Source of the DNA: Streptacidiphilus sp. P02-A3a
GTDB taxonomy: Bacteria > Actinomycetota > Actinomycetes > Streptomycetales > Streptomycetaceae
Length of the DNA stretch: 64,000 bases
Direction of reading: 5' to 3'
Assembly (NCBI RefSeq): GCF_014084105.1
Contig: NZ_CP048289.1
Span: 9,185,922 to 9,249,921, forward strand
Shown here piece after piece: positions 19,405 to 35,070 of the stretch (position 1 is its first letter; each line of letters starts with the position of its first letter). Both the position numbers and the translations under genes were made by a program. The notes under the pieces are model-generated. The model had not been told where the DNA came from and searched no databases. It worked only from the letters and a program-made list of their open reading frames with translations.

Positions 19405-20445
19405 TCAGAGCAGGCCGCGACGGTTGGCCTGGACTCCGGCCTGGAAGCGGTTGCTGGCACCGAGGCCGCTCATCAGCGCGCTCACCCGTCGTTGCACGGT
19501 GCGCGCGGAGACCCCGAGCCGTCTGGCGATCCTCTCGTCGGTCATCCCGGCGGCCAGCAGGGTCAGCAACTCGACCTGGCTGTCCGTGGACTGGGGATCC
19601 GGAGCCGGTACCGGCACAGCCCTGGCCCACTGCGCCTCGAAGGTCTGCAGCAGCGCGTCCAGCAGTGGCGAGGGCCGGACCACCAGCGCCCCGGACACCT
19701 CCGTGCCCGGGGCCAGCGGCAGCAGGCCCCAGCGGAAGTCCACCAGCGCCAGTTTGAACGGAAGTCCGACCGCCGTCCCGGCCTGCTCCCCGGCCGCCAC
19801 CAGCGCCCGCACCTCCGCCAGCTTGGCCGGTTGCAGCAGGGTGGCCCGCTCGTACACCGAGCGCACCGGCACACCCCGTGCCAGTACCGCCAACTCCGGT
19901 CCGACGATGTCGAGCTGGACGAAGGGCGGCTTGTCCAGGATGGCCACCTGCTCGCGTGCGCCGTCCAGCAGCGCCAGCCACAGCTGCTCGATGTGCTCGC
20001 GACCGGTCACCACCTCGACCAGGTCGCCGAGTGAGGGGTCGCGCAGCCCGCGCGAGCGGTGGTAGTCGTCCAGCAGCCGGGTGATCCCTACCCGCAGCCC
20101 GGCCAGCTCCGCCTCCCGGTCGCGCAGCACGTGCTGGAGCGCGACGTCGGGCGCGGTCGCGCTCCAGCGGGCCGGAGCCGCCTGGGGCCGGTCACCGCCA
20201 CCCGCACGGGGGCGGTGACCGTCGTCGTCGGAACCTTCGCTGGCACCAGAGTTGGCCGGTCGGCGGGTCAACGCCCGGGAGCCCAGCCCAACCAGGGCCT
20301 GCAACACCACGGCCGACGGCAGTGCCAGGGCGGCGGCCAGCTCGGCCACGGTCGACGGGCCCAGTCGGCACAGCTCCACATAGACGGCCTCCTCGGCGTC
20401 GCTCAGCTCGTTCCGGCCGTCGTCGCGGCCTCCCGCTGTGAGCAC
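19405..20445 (-). CDS. LuxR-type regulator with TrmB-like N-terminus
   Basis: GTG 20445 (after GGAAGGCGGGATGGC) gives 346 residues. The N-terminus, LSDAEEAVYVELCRLGPSTV with AELAAALALPSAVVLQALVG, is a TrmB/MarR-like winged helix. A central sensor domain carries REQVAILDKPPFVQLDIVGP, and the C-terminus is a LuxR helix-turn-helix, GMTDERIARRLGVSARTVQRR. This layout is common in streptomycetes as one-component regulators of secreted enzymes and metabolites. It is divergent from the G1 peptidase gene, a possible target. It is the first intact core-type gene right of the island. Confidence 0.8.
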   Translation of the reverse strand: MLTAGGRDDGRNELSDAEEAVYVELCRLGPSTVAELAAALALPSAVVLQALVGLGSRALTRRPANSGASEGSDDDGHRPRAGGGDRPQAAPARWSATAPDVALQHVLRDREAELAGLRVGITRLLDDYHRSRGLRDPSLGDLVEVVTGREHIEQLWLALLDGAREQVAILDKPPFVQLDIVGPELAVLARGVPVRSVYERATLLQPAKLAEVRALVAAGEQAGTAVGLPFKLALVDFRWGLLPLAPGTEVSGALVVRPSPLLDALLQTFEAQWARAVPVPAPDPQSTDSQVELLTLLAAGMTDERIARRLGVSARTVQRRVSALMSGLGASNRFQAGVQANRRGLL

Positions 20446-20673
20446 GCCATCCCGCCTTCCCCGGCTGTTCGGAGGCTTTCCCGGAACTGTGCGCCCTTCG
20501 CGGCGGCAGATCAAGACGGCATTGACGGAAACACGTCATGTCGGGATTCCGCAGCGTACTTCCGCTACCGCACCGGCCCCACGCTGACCAGCATTCCCCT
20601 GGGGCCAATGCGCAGCACCCACGGCCGCTGTCCCCCTCCCCGCACCCCCACGCGTCCAGCCGAGGAGCACGGC

Positions 20674-21396
20674 ATGCCTTCTCCGATATCCCGAACCACC
20701 CTCCGCACCAAGGCCTTCACCGTCGGCGCCGTCGCCGCGCTGGCCGCCGCGCTGTTCCCGGCCGGCGCCGCCGCGGCGACCGCCGCGCCGTTCGGCTACG
20801 CCCCCGTCGGGCCCGCCTCGGTGTACGGCACCCAGTGGGCCAGCAGCAGCCCCTGGGGCGGGTACGTCGCCACCGGCAGCGGCTTCACCAGCATCACCGG
20901 CTCCTGGACCGAGCCCTCGGTCACCTGCACCAGCAGCAACAACCTGTTCGCTCCCTGGGTCGGCATCGACGGCTACGGCTCGCAGACCGTGGAGCAGACC
21001 GGCGCCCAGGTGTCCTGCGCCTCCGGCAGCCCGGTGTACAGCGCCTGGTACGAGATGTACCCGGCCAGCCCGGTCTACCTGAGCAAGCCGGTGGCCGCCG
21101 GGGACAGCTTCACCGGCTCGGTCACCGCGACCGGCGGCAGCAACTACCTGATCACCCTGACCGACAACACCCAGGGCTGGACCTACTCCACCACCAAGCG
21201 GTTGAACGCGGAGGACGTCAGCGCCGAGGCCATCATCGAGTCGCCGTCGCAGAGCTACCCCAAGTTCACCGCCACCAAGTTCACCGGGATCACCGTCAAC
21301 GGCAACGTGTTCAGCTCGTACAACCCGATCCCGCTGTCCAGCGGCGGCTACTCGCCGACCGCGCTGAACGGCGGCTCCTTCTCGCTCGTCCCCTGA
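20674..21396 (+). CDS. Secreted G1-family glutamic endopeptidase
   Basis: This 240-residue protein starts at ATG 20674 after CGAGGAG. Residues 1-36 are a signal peptide (basic start, Ala-rich core, AAAATAAP cleavage region). The mature part shows the G1 hallmarks: GGYVATGSGFTSITGSWTEP, APWVGIDGYGSQTVEQTG with catalytic Gln108, and AEAIIESP with catalytic Glu189. G1 (eqolisin) peptidases act at acidic pH outside the cell. Two cysteines are present (C84 and C115). A perfect terminator follows, so it is monocistronic. Confidence 0.88.
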   Translation: MPSPISRTTLRTKAFTVGAVAALAAALFPAGAAAATAAPFGYAPVGPASVYGTQWASSSPWGGYVATGSGFTSITGSWTEPSVTCTSSNNLFAPWVGIDGYGSQTVEQTGAQVSCASGSPVYSAWYEMYPASPVYLSKPVAAGDSFTGSVTATGGSNYLITLTDNTQGWTYSTTKRLNAEDVSAEAIIESPSQSYPKFTATKFTGITVNGNVFSSYNPIPLSSGGYSPTALNGGSFSLVP

Positions 21397-21790: not shown

Positions 21791-22951
21791 GTGGACCGGA
21801 CTCCGGCTGGGCCCGAGCAGCAGGTGCTCTTCGGCTGGGACGAGACCGTGTCCGCCGGGCCGACGAGCGGCGGGTACCGGAACAGCCCCCAGGCGAGGCG
21901 GTTGCTGGACGTGCGGGAGGTGTACGCCGAACCCGCCGCTCTCGGCTCGCCGCGCGGTCAGCAGATCCTGGCCGAACTCCCCGAGGTCCGGCTGATCGAG
22001 GTGCCCAGCCACTGGCGCATCCCCTCGCTGCACGGCAACGAGGGGAACGTCGCCCGCTGGAACCGGGTCAAGACCGAGACCCTGGTCCTGGGCGTCCGGC
22101 AGACCCTCACGACCCGCCCCAACGGCAGGTCGGCCGACTGGATCGCCCCCGGCGCCTCCAACGGCTGCGCCATGGCCTGCGCCTACTGCTACGTGCCGCG
22201 CCGCAAGGGCTATGCGAACCCGATCACCCTGTTCACCAACATCGAAGCGATCGTCGCCCACGTCCGGCGGCACGTTCGGGAGCAGGGCCCCAAACGGGAG
22301 CCCAACCAGTGCGACCCGCGGTCCTGGGTGTACGACATCGGCGAGAACGGCGACTGCTCGGTCGACGCCCTGGTCTGCGACAACACGGCGGATCTCGTCG
22401 CCGCCTTCCGGCAGCTGCCCACCGCCAAGGCGTCGTTCGCCACCAAGTTCGTCAACCCCGACCTGCTCGCGCTGGATCCGCAGGGCCGCACCCGGGTGCG
22501 CTTCTCGCTCATGCCTCCGGATGACTCGCGCCTGCTGGACATCCGCACCAGTCCGGTCGCGGACCGCATCGGCGCCGCGGCCGACTTCCTCGACGCGGGC
22601 TACGAGGTCCACTTCAACCTCTCCCCGGTGGTGCTGCGTCCCGGCTGGCAGCGCGACTGGGCCGACCTGCTGGACCACCTCGACGACGTCCTCCCCGGCC
22701 GGGTGAAGGAGCAGGCCGCCGCCGAGATCATCATGCTGACCCACAACCGGCAACTCCACGAGGTCAACCTCGGCTGGCACCCCCGGGCCGAGGACGTCCT
22801 GTGGCAACCGACCGCCCAGGAGACCAAGCGCTCGGAGAACGGGGCCGTCAACGTCCGCTACGCGCGTGAGGTCAAACGCGACGCCCTCGCCCGGCTGGGA
22901 GAACTGATCTCGACCCACGCGCCCTGGCTGCGGATCCGGTACGCGTTCTGA
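21791..22951 (+). CDS. Spore photoproduct lyase family radical SAM protein
   Basis: GTG 21791 follows AGGAGCAGCACC; the frame extends further upstream but without protein character. The 386-residue product has the SplB-type pattern: a radical-SAM CxxxCxxC motif in NGCAMACAYCY, PRRKGYANPITLFTNIEAIV, YDIGENGDCSVDALV, then the TIM-barrel body to the C-terminal LIxxxxPWLRIRYAF. In Bacillus the enzyme repairs spore photoproduct thymine dimers with SAM. Streptomycete homologues are annotated as SPL-family, with the target DNA lesion unproven. It is flanked by a terminator and an incomplete lectin-like gene. Confidence 0.88.
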   Translation: MDRTPAGPEQQVLFGWDETVSAGPTSGGYRNSPQARRLLDVREVYAEPAALGSPRGQQILAELPEVRLIEVPSHWRIPSLHGNEGNVARWNRVKTETLVLGVRQTLTTRPNGRSADWIAPGASNGCAMACAYCYVPRRKGYANPITLFTNIEAIVAHVRRHVREQGPKREPNQCDPRSWVYDIGENGDCSVDALVCDNTADLVAAFRQLPTAKASFATKFVNPDLLALDPQGRTRVRFSLMPPDDSRLLDIRTSPVADRIGAAADFLDAGYEVHFNLSPVVLRPGWQRDWADLLDHLDDVLPGRVKEQAAAEIIMLTHNRQLHEVNLGWHPRAEDVLWQPTAQETKRSENGAVNVRYAREVKRDALARLGELISTHAPWLRIRYAF

Positions 22952-25337: not shown

Positions 25338-26693
25338 ATGATCGAAATCAACATACTCGGCGATCTGACGGTGATGACCGATGGTCGGGACGTGCCGATG
25401 AGAGCACCGATGGTGCGTCGGCTACTCGTCCAACTACTGGCCCGGGTCGGGCAGACGGTACCTGCGGGAACCCTGTGCGACCTGCTCTGGCCGGGATCCA
25501 AGCCGGTCAACGCCCGGAAGACGCTACAGGTCTACGTACGCAGGCTGCGCCAGGCCCTGGGCGAGGACCGGGTCCGGCACCTGGCCGGTGGGTACTCCGT
25601 CCGGGCCGATCCGGACGAGCTGGACGTACTGCGCTTCGAACGGCTCATCTCGGATGGCCGCGGCGCCCGCCAGAACGGGGAACTGGAGCGGGCGAGCGCG
25701 CTGTTCGACGCCGCGGTCGGCTGCTGGCGCGGAACCCCGTACGCGGAGATCGCCGACACCGGCCTGGTCGACCACGAGATCGACCGGCTGGAGGAACTGC
25801 GGTACAGCCTGCTGGAGGAACGGCTCGGAGTACGGGTGGACCTCGGCCGGTACGCCGAGGCGATCGCCGAGCTCACCTCCCTGGTCTCGGTGTACCCGTA
25901 CCGGGAGAGCCTGCGCGGCCTGCTGATGGTCTCGCTCTACCGGTCCGGCCGGCAGAGCGAGGCCCTCGGCGTGTACCAGGCCACGCTCCGGGTGCTGGAC
26001 CGTGAGCTGGGCGTGCAACCGGGACCGGGCCTGCGTTCGCTGCACGGCCGGATCCTGCGGGCGGAACTGCCCGCGGGGCCGGAGCTGGTCCCCGGCGACC
26101 GGCGCCCACGGCCGGAACTGCCCGGCCGACACTGGCCGGTCCCCCGGCAACTCCCCGCCGGGGTCGCCGGATTCATCGGCCGTGATTGCCAACTCGGGCA
26201 GTTGGAAGCCCTGTTGCCGAACGGCACGGTGATGCGCACCGCCCTGCTCCGAGGTGGTGCCGGAGCCGGAAAGTCCACCCTGGCCGTCCACTGGGCGCAC
26301 GCGGTGGCGGCGCGGTTCCCCGACGGCCAGCTCCACGCGGACCTGCGGGACTCCACGGGGGACCCGGTACCGCCGGACGTGGTCCTGGCGGGGTTCCTGA
26401 CCTCGCTCGGTATTCCGCGGGCACTGCTGCCGGTGAACCTGCCGGAGGCCGCGGCGCTCTTCCGCTCGCTGCTCGCGGACCAGCGCACGCTGGTGCTGCT
26501 GGACGCCGCCGCGTCCGAGGAGCAGGTCAGACCGCTGCTGCCGGGCGGCGGCGGATGCATGGTGCTGGTCACCAGTCGGCAGCGGCTCGACGGACTGGTC
26601 GCCGCCGACGGTGCCTGCCCGGTCGAGCTGGACCCGCTCGGGCTGCTCGGGGCCGGGGCCGCACCGGCCCTGGCGCGGGCCGCGGCGGGATAG
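25338..26693 (+). CDS. SARP-family regulator with shortened NB-ARC domain
   Basis: This 451-residue protein has an OmpR-like DNA-binding domain at residues 1-95 (INILGDLTVMTDGRDVPMRA; RKTLQVYVRRLRQALGEDRV), a BTAD domain at about 100-250, and an ATPase part with Walker A GGAGAGKST and LVLLDAA as Walker B. It ends soon after the sensor segment TSRQRL, so the NB-ARC is truncated and TPRs are absent, between small SARPs and full AfsR. SARPs activate antibiotic and other pathway promoters through 11-bp-spaced heptamer repeats; such repeats occur at 27952-27994. A terminator separates it from the convergent aldo-keto reductase gene. Confidence 0.9.
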   Translation: MIEINILGDLTVMTDGRDVPMRAPMVRRLLVQLLARVGQTVPAGTLCDLLWPGSKPVNARKTLQVYVRRLRQALGEDRVRHLAGGYSVRADPDELDVLRFERLISDGRGARQNGELERASALFDAAVGCWRGTPYAEIADTGLVDHEIDRLEELRYSLLEERLGVRVDLGRYAEAIAELTSLVSVYPYRESLRGLLMVSLYRSGRQSEALGVYQATLRVLDRELGVQPGPGLRSLHGRILRAELPAGPELVPGDRRPRPELPGRHWPVPRQLPAGVAGFIGRDCQLGQLEALLPNGTVMRTALLRGGAGAGKSTLAVHWAHAVAARFPDGQLHADLRDSTGDPVPPDVVLAGFLTSLGIPRALLPVNLPEAAALFRSLLADQRTLVLLDAAASEEQVRPLLPGGGGCMVLVTSRQRLDGLVAADGACPVELDPLGLLGAGAAPALARAAAG

Positions 26694-26781: not shown

Positions 26782-27909
26782 TCAGGGCGAGCAGATGCTG
26801 ACCGGCCCGCCGTGCAGCGGCGGCCACGCCGGACCACCGACGGGCACCGGCGCGGCAGCGGGCGCGGGCGCGGGAGCGGCGGCGGCGGGCGCGGCGCTCC
26901 ACTCCGGCGCGACCGCCATCATCCGGGCGGTCTTGGCCGGATCACGGTCGACCATCCCGCCGAGTACCTCGTCCACCCGCTTGAGCACGTCGTCGTCGAG
27001 TCGCAGGCCCGAGGCCGCGGCGTTCTCGGTGACCTGTTCCGGACGGGAGGCGCCGATCACCGTGCCGGAGACGCTGGGTCGGTTCAGGACCCAGGCGACG
27101 GCCAGCTGGGCCATGGACACGCCCGCGTCCGCGGCCACCTGGCGGAGTTCCTCGACCCGGCCCAGCAGCGCCTCCCCGAGCACCCTGCTGATGAACCGCG
27201 GCCCACGACCGGCGGTGACGGCCCGCGACCGCGCCGGGGCGGGCTGCCCGGGACGGTACTTGCCGGTGAGCACGCCCTGGGCGACCGGCTGGAAGGCGAG
27301 TTGGCCGATGCCCTCGCGCAGGCACAGCGGCACCACCTCGGGTTCGATCACCCGCCACAGCATGTTGTACTGCGGCTGGTTGGAGACGATGCGGCTGCGC
27401 AGTCCGAGCTCCTCGGCCAGCCGCAGGGCGGACTCGATCTGCGGCGCCGTCCACTCGGAGACCCCCAGGTAGAGCACCTTGCCCTGGCGGACCAGGTCGT
27501 CGAAGGCGATCAGCGTCTCCGCCAACGGAGTTCGACCGTCGAAGCGGTGCGCCTGGTAGAGGTCCACGTAGTCGGTCCGCAGCCTGCGCAGCGACGCGTG
27601 GCAGGACTCCATCACGTGCTTGCGGGACAGGCCCGAGTCGTTGGGCCCGGTACCGGTCGGCAGGCAGACCTTGGTGGCGATCTCCAGGGCGGAGCGCCGC
27701 ACGCCGCTCAGGGCCTGCCCCAGCACCTCCTCGGCCGCGCCCTGCGCGTAGACGTCAGCGGTGTCGAAGGTGGTGACGCCCGCGTCGAGCGCGGCCCGGA
27801 TGCAGCTGTCCGCTGCCTCCCGGCTGACGGTCTCCCCGTGGGTGAGCCAGTTCCCGTAAGTGATCTCACTGATCATCAGGCCGCTCTGGCCGAGGTTCCT
27901 ATGCTCCAT
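26782..27909 (-). CDS. Aldo-keto reductase with Ala/Pro-rich tail
   Basis: ATG 27909 (MEHRNLGQSGLMISEITYGN) gives 375 residues. The frame is open 21 codons further upstream, but that extension would run into the operator repeats. The AKR TIM barrel shows FDTADVYAQGAAEEVLGQAL (catalytic Asp and Tyr), then TKVCLPTG and DYVDLYQAHR, with SNQPQYNMLWR late, as in voltage-gated-K-channel-beta-like AKRs (AKR6/YghZ group). The last about 40 residues (PAAAAPAPAPAAAPVPVGG and a CSP end) are a low-complexity extension not part of the fold. It is divergent from the 15-codon peptide gene and shares its SARP-type promoter region, so it may act on the same product. Confidence 0.85.
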   Translation of the reverse strand: MEHRNLGQSGLMISEITYGNWLTHGETVSREAADSCIRAALDAGVTTFDTADVYAQGAAEEVLGQALSGVRRSALEIATKVCLPTGTGPNDSGLSRKHVMESCHASLRRLRTDYVDLYQAHRFDGRTPLAETLIAFDDLVRQGKVLYLGVSEWTAPQIESALRLAEELGLRSRIVSNQPQYNMLWRVIEPEVVPLCLREGIGQLAFQPVAQGVLTGKYRPGQPAPARSRAVTAGRGPRFISRVLGEALLGRVEELRQVAADAGVSMAQLAVAWVLNRPSVSGTVIGASRPEQVTENAAASGLRLDDDVLKRVDEVLGGMVDRDPAKTARMMAVAPEWSAAPAAAAPAPAPAAAPVPVGGPAWPPLHGGPVSICSP

Positions 27910-27951: not shown

Positions 27952-27994
27952 GGGAAACCACGGGGAAACCACCGGGAAACCGGCCTCGGGAAAC
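27952..27994. promoter_or_regulatory. GGGAAAC heptamer repeats, SARP-type operator
   Basis: The heptamer GGGAAAC occurs at 27952, 27963, 27974 and 27988. The first three start exactly 11 bp apart; the last is 14 bp further. Direct heptamer repeats at 11-bp pitch are the known binding geometry of SARP proteins, which sit on one DNA face next to the -10 region. They lie between the aldo-keto reductase (start 27909, minus) and the peptide gene (start 28051, plus). The SARP encoded at 25338-26693 is the obvious candidate; that link is inference. Confidence 0.75.
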
Positions 27995-28050
27995 TGGATA
28001 CCAGGTCGCCGACAAGGTGGCCGAAAGTTCGAACCGGAGGGGAGGCTGAC

Positions 28051-28098
28051 ATGGCGGAGAACAAGGACTTCGATGTCCTCATGAGCGAGGACTACTGA
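28051..28098 (+). CDS. 15-aa micro-peptide MAENKDFDVLMSEDY (precursor- or leader-like)
   Basis: ATG 28051 is preceded, 5 nt away, by GGAGGGGAGG, one of the strongest ribosome-binding sites in the window. The product is MAENKDFDVLMSEDY, acidic with a Tyr end. Its stop is followed by a bulged hairpin (28100-28131) and a strong terminator (28137-28175), so a short transcript dedicated to this peptide is likely. It lies right of SARP-type repeats and left of genes for a helical-repeat protein and an exporter. It could be a ribosomal peptide precursor or a regulatory leader peptide. I recognise no family. Too short to prove coding by composition. Confidence 0.55.
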   Translation: MAENKDFDVLMSEDY

Positions 28099-28136
28099 GC
28101 CGAGAGCTCAGTACGCCGAGCCTGAGCTCGGCCCTA

Positions 28137-28175
28137 AGGGCGGGGAGGAACTCGGAGACGACTCCTCCCCGCCCT
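28137..28175 (+). terminator. Terminator after micro-peptide gene
   Basis: AGGGCGGGGAGGA (28137-28149) pairs exactly with 28163-28175 around a 13-nt loop, followed by CTTAT. A second, bulged hairpin (28100-28111 with 28122-28131) lies directly upstream, so the two could form an attenuator pair limiting read-through into the next gene. Confidence 0.85.
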
Positions 28176-28221: not shown

Positions 28222-29463
28222 GTGTCCGACCGACTTCCGTATTCTCGTAGGAACACTGCTTGGGCGGATCTGGAATTCGCGCCCGCCACCGTGCTCGACG
28301 TCGAGTCGCTGCAACGCAATTGGCGGGCCTGGTTCGAACTGGCCGCTGCCGGCTCGGGACCGCTGTGCGCGGCCAGCACCCCACTGCTGCTGGACCTGCT
28401 GCGTGACGAGTCCACCCAGCAGCCGCTGCCCTACTGCTCGTTGGTGATCGCGGCGGACGCCCGGTCGCGGCTCGCCCGGCAGGCGCGGCAGGACGCGTAC
28501 CTCGGCGCCACCCCGCGCCAGGTCGCGGACGCCACCGGCCTGGAGGGCTGGGCGTTCCTGGCCGCGCAGCTCGACGCCTGGGCCGACCAGGGGCCCGCCC
28601 GGCAGGCGGTCCTGGTCCGGCTGCTCACCCAACTGGGCTTCTACGGGGTCGCCGTCGGGCTGGCGGGAGCCGCCGCGTCGTACGGCGACACCGCCGGTGA
28701 GTACCTGGCCTACGAGAGCGCCCGGGCACTGCGCCAGCACCGCCGCTCCTCCGCCGCGGTGCTGACCGACTTCGCCCGGCTCGCGGAGCAGGCGAGCAAT
28801 GTGTCGGTCCGGGTGCACGCCTGTACCCAGCTGATCTCCGTCCTGCTGCGCGACCGGACCGGCGAGCACCGGGACCGCGACTGGGCGGCCTACGGAACAG
28901 CGCTGCTCCCGGAGTTGGAGCAGGCCGAGCCGTGGCTCAGGGCACTCACCAGCAGCCGGTTCTGGCGGGCCGCCGCCTTCCAGCGGATCGGGGCCAGGGA
29001 CACCGAGGGCGCCCGCACCGCCATCGAGTCCGCCTACGAGGCGGACGACGAACTCGGCCACGCGGCCACCACCGCGCAGCAGCGGCACGCCGCACAGGAG
29101 AACCGCAGGCTGCTGCTGGACGTGACGGTGAAGGCGGGCGGTCGGCTGTTCCCGGCCGAACGCACCAGGGCCGCGGCCGAGGAGCTGCTGCGGCTCGACG
29201 GAAACGAACCCTCGGCCCGCTTCCACGTGGCGGCACTGGCCGAGCAGGAGGGCGATCCGCGGCGCGCCGCCGCGGAGTTCGAACGCGGCGCGCAGGCCGG
29301 GACGCTTCGCGGCGCGGCGGCCGCGTACCGCGCCTTCCTCTGCCATGAGCGCCTGGGCGACCGCGAGGCGGCGGCGCGGGCCGCGCGACTGCTGCTGGAA
29401 CTGGACCCGGCGGCCCACCAGCCGACCACGCAGGACGGTCCGTCCGCCGGCGCGCTGGTCTGA
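28222..29463 (+). CDS. Helical-repeat (TPR-like) protein of unknown function
   Basis: GTG 28222 follows GAAGGAAC. This 413-residue protein is almost wholly alpha-helical, with Ala/Leu/Arg-rich helices such as AYLGATPRQVADATGLEGWA and AAEELLRLDGNEPSARFHVA. The C-terminal third has regular TPR-like spacing (FHVAALAEQEGDPRRAAAEF; AYRAFLCHERLGDREAAARA). No catalytic motif, signal peptide or membrane segment is visible. It is placed between the micro-peptide gene and an MFS exporter gene 38 bp downstream, so it may bind the peptide or a biosynthetic partner. Function unknown. Confidence 0.7.
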   Translation: MSDRLPYSRRNTAWADLEFAPATVLDVESLQRNWRAWFELAAAGSGPLCAASTPLLLDLLRDESTQQPLPYCSLVIAADARSRLARQARQDAYLGATPRQVADATGLEGWAFLAAQLDAWADQGPARQAVLVRLLTQLGFYGVAVGLAGAAASYGDTAGEYLAYESARALRQHRRSSAAVLTDFARLAEQASNVSVRVHACTQLISVLLRDRTGEHRDRDWAAYGTALLPELEQAEPWLRALTSSRFWRAAAFQRIGARDTEGARTAIESAYEADDELGHAATTAQQRHAAQENRRLLLDVTVKAGGRLFPAERTRAAAEELLRLDGNEPSARFHVAALAEQEGDPRRAAAEFERGAQAGTLRGAAAAYRAFLCHERLGDREAAARAARLLLELDPAAHQPTTQDGPSAGALV

Positions 29464-29501: not shown

Positions 29502-30854
29502 ATGGTGAATCAGGCGGAGACCGGGGCCGCTCAGGCGCCCCGAGTGCCACCGGTGCCGGGGCGGGCCGGACTGCTGCGCCGAGCCGGTGCGGCCTTCACC
29601 GGCGGTCTCGACCGCAACTTCTGGCTCATGTGGACCGGCTGGACCATCTCCAGCGCCGGCAACGGGCTGACCGACACCGCCCTCCCGCTGCTGGCGGCCG
29701 ACCTGACCACGAACCCGTCCGCGGTGTCCCTGGTCAGCTTCGCCGACCGGCTGCCCTGGCTGGTGCTGGCCCTGACCGGCGGCGCGCTCTCGGACCGGTG
29801 GGACCGGCGCAAGTCGCTGTGGATCTCCGACGCGGTGCGCTTCGTGATGCTGGTCGGGCTGTTCACCGCGGTGCTGCTCGACTGGGACTCCATCGCGCTG
29901 CTCATGGTGGTGGCGTTCGCGGTCACCGCGATCGAGACCCTCTACGACAGCTCCCGGGCGTCCATCCTGCCGATGCTGGTCACCCAGGACCGGGAGCGCC
30001 TGGAACTGGCGAACCGGCGCCTGATGAGCGCGAACACCGCCGCCCTGAAGTTCGCCGGACCCGCGGCCGGTGGTCTGCTGTACGCCGCGGCCCGTGCCCT
30101 GCCGTCGCTGGTCGACGCGGTGTCCTTCGGACTCAGCGCGATCACGTCCTTCCTGATGCGCGGCGACTTCACCGGGGACGCGGCGGGGTCGGCCCGCAAG
30201 CAGCGTCCGCCCATGCGGCGGGAGATCGCGGAGGGCGTGCGCTGGCTGGCCCGGCACCGGGTACTGCGGGTGTTCACCCTGGTCGCCGGGTTGAAGAACA
30301 TGTGCACCGCGGGCCAGTTGGCGCTGCTGGTGCTCTACACCCGGCAGATCATGCACATCGGCGACGTCGGCTACGGCCTGCTGCTCTCCTCCGTCGCCGT
30401 GGGCAGCGTGCTGGCGGGCTTCACCTGCCGGCTGTTCACCGAGCGGCTGGGCCCGGCGCGATCCAGCCTCGGCGGCTCGGTCTTCGGCGCCGCGGGCTTC
30501 GCCATCCTGGGCTTCACCCACAACACCGCCCTGGTGGCGCTAGGCCTGGCCGTCACCGGCTACACCTCGATGACCTGGAACGTCACCACCGTGTCGCTGC
30601 GCCAGGCGATGGTGCCGAGGCATCTGGCCGGCCGCACCAGCGGTGTGAACCGGCTGGTGACCTTCGGCCTGATGCCGATCGGCGTGCTGATCTCCGGCCA
30701 GATCGCCACCCACTTCGGCCTGAACCTGGTCTACAGCGGCGAGGGCGTCTTCGGCGTCAGCGTGGCCGTCATCGGGCTGCTGAGCCTCTCGAACTCCGCG
30801 GTGGAGGAAGCCCTGCGGGAAGCCCAGGCCCTCCAGGAGACGCAGCCCGCGTAG
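29502..30854 (+). CDS. MFS exporter, EntS-like
   Basis: 450 residues with twelve predicted membrane segments. The inter-helix motif GGALSDRWDRRKSLWISDAV (motif A) and DSSRASILPMLV-like cytosolic loops match the EntS/MFS_3 drug and siderophore exporters. The N-terminal 40 residues are cytosolic and Pro-rich. It follows the helical-repeat gene by 38 bp in the same operon direction. It probably exports the product of this small cluster or gives self-resistance. Confidence 0.88.
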   Translation: MVNQAETGAAQAPRVPPVPGRAGLLRRAGAAFTGGLDRNFWLMWTGWTISSAGNGLTDTALPLLAADLTTNPSAVSLVSFADRLPWLVLALTGGALSDRWDRRKSLWISDAVRFVMLVGLFTAVLLDWDSIALLMVVAFAVTAIETLYDSSRASILPMLVTQDRERLELANRRLMSANTAALKFAGPAAGGLLYAAARALPSLVDAVSFGLSAITSFLMRGDFTGDAAGSARKQRPPMRREIAEGVRWLARHRVLRVFTLVAGLKNMCTAGQLALLVLYTRQIMHIGDVGYGLLLSSVAVGSVLAGFTCRLFTERLGPARSSLGGSVFGAAGFAILGFTHNTALVALGLAVTGYTSMTWNVTTVSLRQAMVPRHLAGRTSGVNRLVTFGLMPIGVLISGQIATHFGLNLVYSGEGVFGVSVAVIGLLSLSNSAVEEALREAQALQETQPA

Positions 30855-30959: not shown

Positions 30960-31664
30960 ATGGCGCTTGAGACGTCCACCGACCATGTCATCAAGGAGAG
31001 CCTGGAACGGGTGTGGCAGGCCTGGACCGACCCCAAGGAGGTGCGGGCCTGGCTCAACCTGCACGACGCGCTGATCCCGCTGACCGTGGGTGAGCCGCTG
31101 CTCTGGTCGTTCAACCGCCGCGGACGGGTGGAGCTGGCCTTCCGCGGGACGCTGCGGGAGATCACCCCGCAGGCGCTGTGCGTCTACGACTGGGAGGTGC
31201 CCGGCAACGACACCCCGACGTCGGTCACGGTGCGCTTCGAGAAGGTCGACGAGAAGCAGACCCGGGTGTCCGTGCGGCACACCGGGTTCAGCGAGTCGCT
31301 GCGGTCCCGGCTGGAGTTCGACGGCTACGACCACCACTGGTGGCACTACCTGGAGCGGCTCGCCGGCTACCTGGAGTACCGCCCGTTCCAGTTCCACAGC
31401 ACCCTGACGCCGCCGAAGACCGGCATCATCCCCCTGGGAGTCACCCCGGAGACCGGGATGGTGGTCCAGGACGTCGTGGTCAACTCCGCCGCGGAGGCCG
31501 TCGGCATGCGGGCCGGGGACGAGATCCGTTCGATCGACGGCATCGCGCTCACTGAGATGGAGGACTTCCACCGATGGCTGGACGAGGCGGTGCCCGGACA
31601 GCAGGCCCGGTTCGAACTGAAGGACCGCACCTTGACCCTGGTGCTGCGGCCGTTCACGGCGTGA
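30960..31664 (+). CDS. SRPBCC (AHSA1-like) - PDZ fusion protein
   Basis: ATG 30960 follows CCAGGAGTAGGGCC. Residues 1-145 form an AHSA1/SRPBCC helix-grip fold (ETSTDHVIKESLERVWQAWT; RFEKVDEKQTRVSVRHTGFS; HHWWHYLERLAGYL). Residues 150-234 form a PDZ domain (IIPLGVTPETGMVVQDVVVN; AEAVGMRAGDEIRSIDGIAL). SRPBCC pockets bind hydrophobic ligands; PDZ domains bind peptide C-termini. The pairing is unusual in a cytosolic protein without protease or signal peptide. It overlaps the flavin reductase start (GTGA). In this cluster a role in handling a small molecule or peptide tail is possible. Confidence 0.8.
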   Translation: MALETSTDHVIKESLERVWQAWTDPKEVRAWLNLHDALIPLTVGEPLLWSFNRRGRVELAFRGTLREITPQALCVYDWEVPGNDTPTSVTVRFEKVDEKQTRVSVRHTGFSESLRSRLEFDGYDHHWWHYLERLAGYLEYRPFQFHSTLTPPKTGIIPLGVTPETGMVVQDVVVNSAAEAVGMRAGDEIRSIDGIALTEMEDFHRWLDEAVPGQQARFELKDRTLTLVLRPFTA

Positions 31665-32722: not shown

Positions 32723-33409
32723 TCACCTCGGGCCCTGCGCCAGTCCCTCCTGTACCGCCCACATGGCGGCCTGGGTACGGGAGGCCAGGCCCAGTCTGGC
32801 GAGGATGTCCGAGACATGGGTGCGGGCGGTGCGCTCGCTCACCACCAGGGTCTCGGCGATCTGGCGGTTCGACGCCCCTTCGGCGATCAGCAGGAGCACC
32901 TCGCGCTGCCTGCGGGTCAGGCTTTCCCCGGTCCGCTGGGGAGCCCGGGTCGAGTCGGCGAGTATCCGGGCCACGGCGGGATCCAGGTGCATCCGCCCGG
33001 CGACGGCGGCGCGGACGGCGGCGGCGACCTCGTCGGCGTCGGCGTCCTTGAGCAGGTAGCCCGCCGCCCCGGCCTCCAGGGCACCACGGACCTTGCTCTC
33101 CTCCACGAAGCTGGTCACCGCCACCACCTCGACGGCCGGCCACCGGGCCTTGATCCGGCGGGTGGCGGTGATGCCGTCCATCCCCGGCATCATCAGGTCC
33201 ATGAGCACCACGTCCGGCAGGGCGTCGGCGGGTTCGAGGACGGCTATCCGGTCCAGCGCCTCCTGGCCGTCCGCGGCCTCGCCGACCACCTCGATGTCGT
33301 CGACCATGGCCAGGTAGGCGGCGACACCGCTGCGCACGACCCGGTGGTCGTCGACCAGGAAGACGCGGAAGGGCTGGTCGGCCCGACCGGCCTGGGTGTC
33401 CGTGGGCAT
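32723..33409 (-). CDS. NarL/FixJ-type response regulator
   Basis: 228 residues: a receiver (FRVFLVDDHRVVRSGVAAYL; VVLMDLMMPGMDGITATRRI with Asp; AVTSFVEES; YLLKDADADEV) and a LuxR helix-turn-helix (LTRRQREVLLLIAEGASNRQ; AETLVVSERTARTHVSDILA). ATG 33409 overlaps the kinase stop by one base (TGATG), so the pair is translationally coupled. The acidic VDDH phospho-site residues are intact. Its target genes are unknown. Confidence 0.92.
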   Translation of the reverse strand: MPTDTQAGRADQPFRVFLVDDHRVVRSGVAAYLAMVDDIEVVGEAADGQEALDRIAVLEPADALPDVVLMDLMMPGMDGITATRRIKARWPAVEVVAVTSFVEESKVRGALEAGAAGYLLKDADADEVAAAVRAAVAGRMHLDPAVARILADSTRAPQRTGESLTRRQREVLLLIAEGASNRQIAETLVVSERTARTHVSDILARLGLASRTQAAMWAVQEGLAQGPR

Positions 33410-35070
33410 CAGGTGCCTTCCTTGGGGTGACCCCGTCGGCGGTGCGGCAGCGTCACGGTGACGACGGTGCCGGTGCGCCCCGCGTCGGCGCCGGTGACGC
33501 CGGTGACGTGGGTGACGCCGGTGACGCCGTCGGCGCCGGGGTGCCGGGTGCTGGTGACGGTGAACTGGGCGCCGATGGCCTGGGCGCGCTCCGCCATGCT
33601 GGAGAGGCCCATGGAACCCGAGTGCTCGGCGGCGGGGTCGAAACCGGCACCGTCGTCGCTCACCACGGTCCGCAGCGCGCCCGCCTCAACGGTGACGTGG
33701 ACGGTCGCGTGCCGGGCACCGGCGTGCTTGACGACGTTGTTGAGCGCTTCGGACGCGATCCGGTAGAGATGCTCCTCGACCCCGCTCCCGAGGTCCAGCC
33801 GCCGTTCGGGGCCGTCCACCGCGATCGCCACCTGCTCCCGGGCGGTCAGCGCCGCGCCCTGCTTGCGCAGGGCGGAGACCAGGCCCTCCTCGGCCAGGGC
33901 CCCCGGACGCAGTTCGAAGATGAGGGCCCGCATCTCCGCCAGGGTGCCCCGGGTCAGCTCGGCGAGCTGGGCCACGGACCGGCCCAGCGGCCCGCTGTCG
34001 TCCAGGTCTGCCTTGGACATCGCCAGTTGCGCGGCCCGGGCGTGCATGGTCATGGAGAACAGCGCCTGGCTGATCGAGTCGTGCAGCTCACGGGCGAGCC
34101 GGGTGCGTTCCATCGACGCCGCCAGCCGGGCGTTGGTCACCGCCACGGCGCACTGGTCGGCGAGGACGTTGTAGAAGGCGCACTCCTCCGCGTTGGGGTC
34201 GGCCGCCCCCGGCGGCCGGTGCGCCCCGAACACCCCGAACACCTCGCCCTCCCAGGACAGCGGCGCGTAGTAGGAGCCCTGCCAGTCCAGGCTCTCCATG
34301 GTGGCGGCGAAGGCCCTGGTGGCCGGGGCGGCGCCCATCGCCGCGCGGGCGTCGGGCAGGAACACCGGCTTGCCGGTGAGCACGTGGGACCCGCCGGGCA
34401 TCTCGTCCAGGGTGACCGAACTGGCGGTCCACGCGCTCATGCTGCGGGCGCGGTCCGGGAACCCGTAGCCGCCCGCCACGGCCAGCTTGTGGTCGTCGCC
34501 GATCACCACGATGCCGCAGGCGACGGCGGCGGTGCTGTCGACGGCGTGCCGGGCGATGCCCCGCAGGATCTCCTCCACCGTCCCCGCCGCGACGAGTTGG
34601 GCCGTGGTCTGCGCCAGGGCCACCGCGGTGCGCTCCCGGGCGGGTCCGCCGCCGAGGTCGCGCAGGATCGCCACCCAGTGCCGGGCGCCGCCGATGTCGG
34701 TGGCGACGACGGAACACGTGACCTCCCGGCCGACGGTGTCCGGGCCGCCCACGAGGCAGCGGAACGGCGCGGGCGCGTCCTCCGGGCCCCAGGGGAAGCG
34801 ACCCGGAGGCGTCGCCCCGCCGCCGAACCCCAGGGCGCCGAGGAGTTCGCCGCCGCGCAGCCGATCCAGCGGTCGGCCCAGCATCCGGCAGGCCGCGGGG
34901 TTGGCGTGGACGAACCGGCCGTCGGCGTCGACGACCGTGATCCCGTCCTCGACGCCGTCCAGCACCGCCGCCAGCGTGGGCAGGCCCAACGCGGCCACGT
35001 CCCCGCTCACCAGCACAGGCTGCCCGTCCACCGCGCCACGCCCCATCTCTGTCCCCGTCCCACCTGACAC
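33409..35070 (-). CDS. Cytosolic PAS-GAF sensor histidine kinase
   Basis: This 553-residue protein has no membrane segments. A PAS domain occupies about 25-130 (DGVEDGITVVDADGRFVHAN), a GAF domain about 165-315, and the HisKA_3 dimerisation helix with RTRLARELHDSISQALFSMT (phospho-His) about 325-390. A HATPase_c domain ends the protein (ALNNVVKHAGARHATVHVTV; SDDGAGFD). It signals to the overlapping NarL-type regulator. The region before the C-terminus contains a GVTGVTHVTGVTG repeat inserted between the last HATPase strands. Confidence 0.9.
   Translation of the reverse strand: MSGGTGTEMGRGAVDGQPVLVSGDVAALGLPTLAAVLDGVEDGITVVDADGRFVHANPAACRMLGRPLDRLRGGELLGALGFGGGATPPGRFPWGPEDAPAPFRCLVGGPDTVGREVTCSVVATDIGGARHWVAILRDLGGGPARERTAVALAQTTAQLVAAGTVEEILRGIARHAVDSTAAVACGIVVIGDDHKLAVAGGYGFPDRARSMSAWTASSVTLDEMPGGSHVLTGKPVFLPDARAAMGAAPATRAFAATMESLDWQGSYYAPLSWEGEVFGVFGAHRPPGAADPNAEECAFYNVLADQCAVAVTNARLAASMERTRLARELHDSISQALFSMTMHARAAQLAMSKADLDDSGPLGRSVAQLAELTRGTLAEMRALIFELRPGALAEEGLVSALRKQGAALTAREQVAIAVDGPERRLDLGSGVEEHLYRIASEALNNVVKHAGARHATVHVTVEAGALRTVVSDDGAGFDPAAEHSGSMGLSSMAERAQAIGAQFTVTSTRHPGADGVTGVTHVTGVTGADAGRTGTVVTVTLPHRRRGHPKEGT

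What the first reader, a model, noticed from the sequence alone, without database searches (positions are those of the whole stretch)
27952..28175. SARP-type heptamer array driving a 15-codon peptide gene with its own terminator
Seen: GGGAAAC at 27952, 27963, 27974 (exact 11-bp steps) and 27988; then GGAGGGGAGG 5 nt before ATG 28051; then MAENKDFDVLMSEDY and a perfect 13-bp terminator at 28137-28175. Known: SARPs bind direct heptamers at 11-bp pitch, and a SARP gene lies 1.3 kb away. Inferred: a short, strongly translated transcript under SARP control, as for a precursor peptide or a regulatory leader. I know no family with this peptide. With the aldo-keto reductase, helical-repeat protein, exporter, SRPBCC-PDZ protein and flavin reductase it could be an undescribed peptide pathway.
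Basis: partly seen in the sequence, partly recalled or inferred. Interest (0 to 1): 0.82.

Follow-up and report, generated by a model that had tools for sequence, protein, structure and literature searches.

The report
Tiny precursor peptide beside TPR protein
A 15-amino-acid peptide gene in what looks like a Streptomyces-type bacterium is probably the smallest member of an apparently undescribed group of peptides, each encoded in the same cluster as one kind of repeat protein, in gene clusters that probably turn them into small natural products.

Summary
In detail: three exact GGGAAAC heptamers at 11-bp pitch plus a fourth, a strong ribosome-binding site, a 15-codon ORF and a 13-bp GC-rich hairpin. 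The spaced triple occurs once in the genome. The hairpin lacks a U-run.

The helical protein downstream has no Pfam or NCBIfam match; its model is a confident TPR superhelix. Of 36 relatives' loci read, 33 have a short peptide gene in the same cluster. The closest eight encode peptides ending EFDVL[GA][NT]KSY, then YcaO, the TPR protein, JmjC (6 of 8), and the same MFS and AHSA1-PDZ proteins. MAENKDFDVLMSEDY shares FDVL, four residues, terminal Tyr. A motif fitted to the peptides hits 15 of 586 mini-ORFs, all TPR-linked.

Best reading: a SARP-controlled RiPP-like cluster with a minimal precursor that the TPR protein holds. The window lacks YcaO and JmjC; its chemistry is unknown. Precursor peptide about 0.75; SARP control likely but untested. 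I found no paper describing it in the searches named.

The parts
25338..26693 (+). SARP-type regulator, 451 aa (Trans_reg_C + BTAD)
   Evidence: Pfam BTAD E 4.3e-43, Trans_reg_C 1.2e-6
26782..27909 (-). aldo-keto reductase, divergent from the peptide; start taken at ATG 27909
   Evidence: Pfam Aldo_ket_red E 5e-75; an AKR (38% identity) also lies in the TPR-protein locus L124
27952..27994 (+). heptamer array GGGAAAC x3 at 11-bp pitch plus a fourth copy after 14 bp; proposed SARP operator
   Evidence: same layout as published SARP operators
28036..28045 (+). ribosome-binding site GGAGGGGAGG, 5 nt before ATG
28051..28098 (+). 15-codon peptide gene MAENKDFDVLMSEDY, proposed RiPP precursor
   Evidence: relatives
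28095..28175 (+). three successive hairpins; the last (28137-28175) has a 13-bp GC-rich stem without U-run
28222..29463 (+). TPR superhelix protein, 413 aa, shared by the related clusters
   Evidence: no Pfam/NCBIfam match; model pLDDT 90, pTM 0.90; TPR by fold and profile; nearest relatives 32-35% identical
29502..30854 (+). MFS_3 exporter
   Evidence: 36-39% identity to the MFS in L035-L038
30960..31664 (+). AHSA1/SRPBCC-PDZ fusion protein
   Evidence: 29% identity over almost full length to the fusion in L035-L038
31661..32161 (+). flavin reductase, start overlapping the stop of the previous gene
   Evidence: Pfam Flavin_Reduct E 1.7e-37 (scanned from a longer start at 31574); FR genes also in TPR-protein loci L082, L083, L084, L118

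Best explanation
The 15-codon gene encodes a minimal precursor peptide of a RiPP-like pathway. Shown by sequence: the ORF, its RBS, the heptamer array, the gene order peptide - TPR protein - MFS - AHSA1/PDZ - flavin reductase, and the corresponding order in relatives. Inferred: the SARP protein binds the GGGAAAC triple and switches on the leftward AKR gene and the rightward peptide operon; the GC-rich hairpin after the ORF leaves more copies of the peptide message than of the enzyme message; the TPR protein binds the peptide through the [DE][FY]-x-V-L stretch and presents the C-terminal part (about MSEDY) to the redox enzymes (AKR, flavin reductase) and the AHSA1-fold protein; the MFS protein exports the product. 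In relatives related TPR proteins and peptides are coupled to YcaO, JmjC, class V PLP enzyme, nitroreductase-like, halogenase-like or B12 radical SAM enzymes, so the TPR protein looks like the constant peptide-handling part and the enzymes like the variable part.
For: Weak matches (best E 3.3e-9 for one genome) led to 10 loci with long homologues whose C-terminal half aligns with the window protein (31.7 bits, E 2.5e-12 for a one-sequence search, profile columns 432-800); each of these 10, and an 11th, has a 29-33 aa peptide gene with RBS upstream. Shorter homologues 32-35% identical share MFS and AHSA1-PDZ genes in the same order and have 25-26 aa peptides ending EFDVL[GA][NT]KSY. L082 (YcaO, TPR, S9-type, FR) has QDYPVLLCTDY against KDFDVLMSEDY. 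L118 has EEFGLTVSGVAYY, L127 an 18-aa peptide. A pattern written from the peptides matches 15 of 586 ATG+RBS mini-ORFs in 37 loci (720 kb), all TPR-linked (partly circular, see full report). In the window, 1 of 484 mini-ORFs reaches 4 or more of 10 C-terminal identities; the shuffled peptide reaches 5 or more in 216 of 200,000. Peptides of 7 relatives vary at 10 third-codon columns against 4 and 5 at positions 1 and 2. SARP genes recur near TPR-protein loci; 11-bp arrays at 1% of shuffles or less stand before the peptide in 4 of 8 tested loci with a SARP gene and 0 of 10 without (SARP status).
Against: The window has no YcaO or JmjC gene at the locus and no well-known RiPP-modifying enzyme. 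The peptide is ten residues shorter than its nearest relatives and lacks their WDLGQVDEE part. Peptide similarity alone is modest: by ungapped BLOSUM score 29 of 3,000 shuffles do as well and one unrelated mini-ORF of 484 scores higher. No close relative of the whole window cluster was found, so selection on this ORF cannot be measured. The whole-region hairpin test passes (5 or fewer of 100 shuffles) in 14 of 25 loci and fails in all eight YcaO-type loci. In alignment A5 the TPR protein is 19-35% identical to its relatives.
Confidence: 0.75

Rival explanations
1. Decayed or reduced cluster: an ancestor with YcaO, JmjC and a 25-aa precursor lost its modifying enzymes and the leader, and the 15-codon ORF is a remnant or works only with an enzyme encoded elsewhere in the genome.
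For: YcaO, JmjC and S9 genes of the nearest relatives are missing; the one YcaO found in the genome lies 4 Mb away and gave no tblastn match to the YcaO of L037.
Against: RBS, heptamer triple, 14 of 15 G/C-ending codons and open TPR, MFS and AHSA1-PDZ genes argue against decay; other TPR-protein clusters show no YcaO match either.
Confidence: 0.1
2. Regulatory upstream ORF: translation of the 15 codons controls folding of the three hairpins and so expression of the TPR operon.
For: The ORF end touches the first hairpin (28095-28111) and two more hairpins follow.
Against: No run of regulatory codons; what is shared with relatives is the C-terminal amino-acid motif; in several relatives the peptide gene is followed by a YcaO or other gene, not by the TPR gene.
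Confidence: 0.08
3. Signal peptide and receptor: the TPR protein is an RRNPP-like (Rap/NprR-type) sensor for the short peptide.
For: TPR fold; Rap and NprR chains are among the VIA rows at Z 13.8-14.4.
Against: No secretion signal in the 15 residues (by eye), no HTH domain found by Pfam, relatives carry peptide-modifying enzymes, and many unrelated TPR proteins score as high or higher.
Confidence: 0.05
4. Chance ORF: a fortuitous short frame behind an RBS-like run in the leader of the TPR gene.
For: 15 codons only; no close homologue to test selection.
Against: Motif, position, RBS and codon composition together.
Confidence: 0.02

Closest known systems
Standalone-YcaO RiPPs (e.g. streptamidine)
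   Same: Short precursor gene, small tailoring cluster and transporter in actinobacteria; the nearest relatives of the window have a YcaO gene next to the TPR gene.
   Different: The window has no YcaO. Streptamidine-family precursors have 31-89 residues and an ALV motif, with iron and ABC transporter genes (PMC8442711, passages); the words TPR, helical and MFS do not occur in that main text.
TPR proteins of other RiPP or pearlin pathways (AmmC2 of ammosamide; TPR arginase BipC/PbsE of biphenomycin-type peptides; HaaT)
   Same: A TPR protein in a ribosomal-peptide cluster; AmmC2 is suggested to serve protein-protein contacts in a multi-enzyme complex (PMC12424672, passages); BipC and PbsE per PMC12707348 and PMC12257519, passages.
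   Different: No arginase domain was found in the window protein and no match to the HaaT model. AmmC2 and BipC were not compared by sequence.
SARP operators such as that of PimR
   Same: Three heptameric direct repeats with 4-bp spacers (PMC5930380; PMC3367932; passages).
   Different: Heptamer GGGAAAC instead of CGGCAAG; binding not tested; a fourth copy at 14 bp.
RRNPP receptors (Rap, NprR)
   Same: TPR superhelix that binds short peptides (fold rows; peptide sensing recalled).
   Different: No secretion signal, cluster with modifying enzymes in relatives.

Membership tests
RiPP biosynthetic cluster | short precursor gene beside maturation and export genes | tested here: met
   (gene content only; translation not shown)
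RiPP biosynthetic cluster | precursor family recognisable in related clusters | tested here: met
   similarity modest for the window peptide taken alone
RiPP biosynthetic cluster | recognised peptide-modifying enzyme in the cluster | tested here: inconclusive
   relatives: YcaO, JmjC_2, class V PLP, ThiF-type, B12 rSAM; window: only AKR, AHSA1-PDZ, flavin reductase
RiPP biosynthetic cluster | modified peptide product | not testable with these tools
   needs expression and mass spectrometry
YcaO-type RiPP | YcaO gene at the locus | tested here: not met
   one YcaO match in the genome, at 5.26 Mb; present in the nearest relatives
SARP-regulated operon | heptameric direct repeats at 11-bp pitch in the promoter region | tested here: met
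SARP-regulated operon | SARP gene nearby | tested here: met
SARP-regulated operon | SARP binds the repeats and activates | not testable with these tools
   gel shift or reporter needed
Intrinsic terminator at 28137-28175 | GC-rich stem | tested here: met
   13-bp stem
Intrinsic terminator at 28137-28175 | U-run after the stem | tested here: not met
   CTTATG follows; not listed by the scan, whose loop limit is 8 nt
TPR superfamily | helical-hairpin superhelix | tested here: met
HaaT or FxSxx TPR proteins | match to the NCBIfam model | tested here: not met
   the window TPR protein has no NCBIfam match at 1e-3
AmmC2-type TPR proteins | sequence relationship | not tested
   sequence not at hand
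RRNPP systems | receptor fold | tested here: inconclusive
   Rap/NprR among many TPR rows
RRNPP systems | peptide exported through an N-terminal signal | tested here: not met
   no hydrophobic stretch in the 15 residues (sequence, by eye; the requirement is recalled)

The most novel reading that the evidence does not exclude
A TPR superhelix serves as a general peptide-recognition module, in place of the usual RiPP recognition element, for a whole superfamily of actinobacterial ribosomal-peptide pathways whose enzymes differ (YcaO, class V PLP, B12 radical SAM with a ThiF-type protein, halogenase-like, nitroreductase-like, AKR/flavin reductase). The window holds its most reduced form: a 15-residue precursor with only about five residues after the recognition motif, whose C-terminal Tyr may be the part turned into a small metabolite.
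Probability: 0.4. Interest if true: 0.78.

Novelty: new variant of a known kind. Interest (0 to 1): 0.62.

Why it matters
If right, one protein family (this TPR protein) becomes a hook for finding ribosomal-peptide pathways that precursor-based or known-enzyme-based genome mining can miss, since many of the peptides seen here have only 15-35 residues. It also offers a simple test system (15 residues, one partner protein) for how a TPR protein could hold a peptide for tailoring, and a clean candidate SARP operator to work with.

Tried and rejected
Rejected: that the helical protein is an orphan without relatives (one search found none by single-sequence scan of genome contigs; profile and alignment searches did). 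Plasmids: no match. Rejected: longer N-terminus for the peptide, no ATG, GTG or TTG in frame. Rejected: a YcaO or JmjC partner at the locus. Fold rows alone do not name a function: TPR proteins of many kinds score alike. The whole-region hairpin test is not passed in 11 of 25 loci: L021, L035-L038, L074-L077, L082, L085. 11-bp arrays: 4 of 17 leaders (window, L078, L084, L085) with 3 or fewer of 300 shuffles; an eighth locus with a SARP gene, L127, has 3 of 200 (1.5%) and is counted as not passing. L084's array is a plain tandem repeat that may partly overlap the upstream gene, L083-L085 are related to each other, and L118 and L120-L122 and L124 were not tested, so the contrast 4 of 8 against 0 of 10 is weak.

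Loci read: 37, that is 36 relatives and the window (list). A peptide was found in 33 of 36 relatives; in many it is directly upstream of the TPR gene, in others (for example L078-L081, L121, L123, L124) it starts the run of genes and other genes lie between. Missing: L087 (weak partial match), L119 (TPR gene region poorly called), L120 (a 55-codon ORF before a radical-SAM-like gene instead, not counted). Not fetched with flanks: one weak genome (G230); 5 weak genomes; the 7 weakest of the 24; and of the 144 of 391 genomes, whose match list was cut, all but 7 and the own genome, since the listed rest mostly match only the C-terminal TPR repeats. Genes were called in relatives with a simple script of mine; gene names there rest on BLAST to a few reference proteins, on Pfam or NCBIfam for the proteins named, and otherwise on likeness of the N-terminus by eye.

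The host's name was not shown; 'Streptomycetaceae' for the window's family is my inference from genome size, GC and the position near a chromosome end, not a result.

Papers: ten searches. Words of the peptides were in no held paper; combinations of cluster terms gave 1 unrelated paper, 1 paper, none, 75 and 9 papers (15 and 8 listed), and SARP heptamers 3. PMC8442711, PMC12424672, PMC12707348, PMC12257519, PMC5930380 and PMC3367932 were seen as passages only; PMC6511847 by word search without a hit. The statement that the family is not in print rests on these searches alone.

Full report
Observation. GGGAAAC at 27952, 27963, 27974 is, with its overlapping neighbour frame, the only exact heptamer triple at 11-bp pitch in the window, occurs once in the 9.33-Mb genome as a spaced triple and is reached by 0 of 300 shuffles of its leader. 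The 15-codon ORF has 14 codons ending in G or C, an RBS 5 nt upstream, and no other ATG, GTG or TTG in frame back to the previous stop. The hairpin behind it is real (z -6.0 for the 91-nt stretch) but has no U-run, so its role as terminator is open.

Neighbours. SARP (BTAD), divergent aldo-keto reductase, MFS_3 exporter, AHSA1-PDZ fusion and flavin reductase were confirmed with Pfam. The 413-aa helical protein has no Pfam or NCBIfam match. In the genome the YcaO model matches once, at 5.26 Mb, and JmjC_2 twice, at 0.15 and 7.5 Mb; none of these lies in the window (9.19-9.25 Mb).

Relatives in the window's family. Of 394 genomes of the family, 12 (own included) matched the helical protein; the other eleven were weak, 24-29% identical. 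Ten of the eleven loci were taken with flanks. They encode proteins of 840-887 aa (in L017 read as two frames) whose C-terminal half is homologous to the window protein (31.7 bits, E 2.5e-12 and hhalign E 1.6e-8, both for a search of one sequence). Around it the gene calls show MFS - class V PLP enzyme - peptide - TPR protein - M17 peptidase (families tested for L014 only; in L019 the PLP gene was called only in part). All ten have a 31-33 aa peptide gene with RBS upstream of the TPR gene, type MAYETWESLEDEVEISTGAADCWTCLIDDGGV, and an 11th locus (L034), in another family, has one of 29 aa.

Closer relatives. A profile search of 394 genomes of the class gave 8 with a match; one of them (G701) held a short homologue. 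That locus (L033) has peptide MEISWDLGQVDEEAQEFDVLGNKSY - YcaO - TPR (33%) - JmjC_2 - MFS (39%) - AHSA1-PDZ (29%) - S9-type hydrolase - DUF6176. A scan of genome contigs with the two-sequence alignment gave four named loci, in Sphaerisporangium album, Streptosporangium sp. KLBMP 9127, S. pseudovulgare (the same as L033) and S. sandarakinum, all with this peptide type. A search of 341 genomes of that family gave 24 with a match; sixteen loci were taken, three of them already held. Four new ones carry the same kind of cluster (L074-L077), ending EFDVL[GA][NT]KSY; so eight distinct loci of this type, six with JmjC (L036 and L077 without). Further types are L078 and L079 (SEYDVMLLQCECY, SAYDVMLIQGRIY; nitroreductase-like genes in L078), L080 and L081 (EEFGVLLAAEYNYQAQ, EEFGTLMSAEYNYMAQ; a halogenase-like flavoprotein in L080), L082 (QDYPVLLCTDYMA, with YcaO, S9-type hydrolase, methyltransferase, FAD-binding oxidase and flavin reductase), and L083-L085 (ThiF-type leader-binding protein and B12 radical SAM enzyme, tested in L083). 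In the order, 144 of 391 genomes matched a broader profile, of those listed mostly only in the generic TPR repeats; seven loci with longer matches were taken. These gave L118 (EEFGLTVSGVAYYAPAV, with flavin reductase and M3 peptidase) and L121-L124 (53-56 aa...KKPAFF...; in L124 arginase-family, M3 peptidase and AKR genes), while L119 and L120 gave no clear peptide. A last search of 392 genomes at E 1e-12 gave 2 with a match; L127 has an 18-aa peptide MIREESRDLTAMLYKACA before the TPR gene and a SARP gene.

Is the window peptide one of these? Aligned from the stop codon, it shares 5 of 10 residues with the YcaO-type peptides (FDVL and Tyr), a score reached by 216 of 200,000 shuffles; of 484 mini-ORFs in the window no other reaches 4. 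By ungapped BLOSUM score the best partner is L082 (ENKDFDVLMSEDY / DDQDYPVLLCTDY, 33); 29 of 3,000 shuffles reach this and one other mini-ORF of 484 scores 34, so this measure alone is weak. A pattern matches 15 of 586 ATG+RBS mini-ORFs in 37 loci, all 15 being TPR-linked peptides; the window's is one of them. The pattern was written after seeing the peptides, and apart from two unused letters each of its classes occurs in relatives' peptides, so the 14 relatives' hits are circular; the zero among the other 571 and the window hit are the informative part. The pattern misses the peptides of L014-L023, L034, L079, L083-L085, L121-L124 and L127. In seven YcaO-type relatives third codon positions vary in 10 columns, first and second in 4 and 5, which fits translated peptides.

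TPR protein. The AlphaFold2 model from 25 sequences has mean pLDDT 90 and pTM 0.90 and twenty helices. The 50 Foldseek and 50 VIA rows shown are mostly TPR proteins, among them LGN with bound partners and APPBP2 with a degron, and Rap/NprR further down; the profile matches designed consensus TPRs and OGT in its last third. Peptide binding is inference from fold and gene order.

Regulation. SARP operators of three heptamers with 4-bp spacers are documented for PimR (PMC5930380, PMC3367932; passages). The window array has that layout with a different heptamer. Among 17 peptide leaders tested, 4 (window, L078, L084, L085) have an 11-bp array at 3 or fewer of 300 shuffles; L127 was tested apart (3 of 200). 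With that one, 4 of 8 loci where I found a SARP gene pass and none of the 10 where I did not. Dependence among L083-L085 and the simple repeat in L084 weaken this.

Stem-loop behind the peptide. 14 of 25 regions between peptide and next gene fold better than at least 95 of 100 shuffles; the eight YcaO-type loci, L021, L082 and L085 do not.

Conclusion. The peptide is most likely a minimal precursor in a RiPP-like cluster of an apparently undescribed superfamily marked by the TPR protein. Membership in YcaO RiPPs fails for the window itself. The chemistry, the SARP binding and the export are inferred. TPR proteins already reported in ribosomal-peptide clusters (AmmC2, BipC/PbsE) show that the general idea of a TPR partner is not new; the family, the peptides and this size of precursor beside it appear to be, as far as the searches named reach.

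Noticed in passing
L014-L023 and L034: Undescribed-looking cluster MFS - class V PLP enzyme - 29-33 aa peptide (...TGAADCW[TV]CL...) - two-part TPR protein - M17 peptidase in 11 genomes; L021 has two tandem peptides.
   Followed up: partly
L121-L124: Peptides of 53-56 aa with a KKPAFF motif in clusters with a TPR-type protein; L124 has arginase-family and M3 peptidase genes. No family name found.
   Followed up: partly
L083 8709-16851, L084, L085: Peptide - ThiF-type leader-binding protein - TPR - B12-binding radical SAM enzyme - MFS, with flavin reductase (L083, L084) and a SARP gene; peptides end ...GLPDAAAIL[ST]YE[YE].
   Followed up: partly
L077 5744-8560 and 14492-17308: The YcaO-TPR cluster is flanked by what looks like two copies of the same two genes (450-aa and 448-aa products): either a recent insertion between direct repeats or an assembly effect.
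   Followed up: no
window 19405-21396: LuxR/TrmB-type regulator next to a peptidase A4 family gene; regulators 32-37% identical to it also lie near TPR-protein clusters in L017, L081 and L120.
   Followed up: no
window about 49746: Short direct repeats of 14-bp period (CGTGAATCGTCA...).
   Followed up: no
window 32723-35070: Two-component system (LuxR-type response regulator and PAS-GAF histidine kinase) after the flavin reductase, on the other strand.
   Followed up: no
window 21791-22951: Spore photoproduct lyase-like radical SAM protein near the cluster.
   Followed up: no
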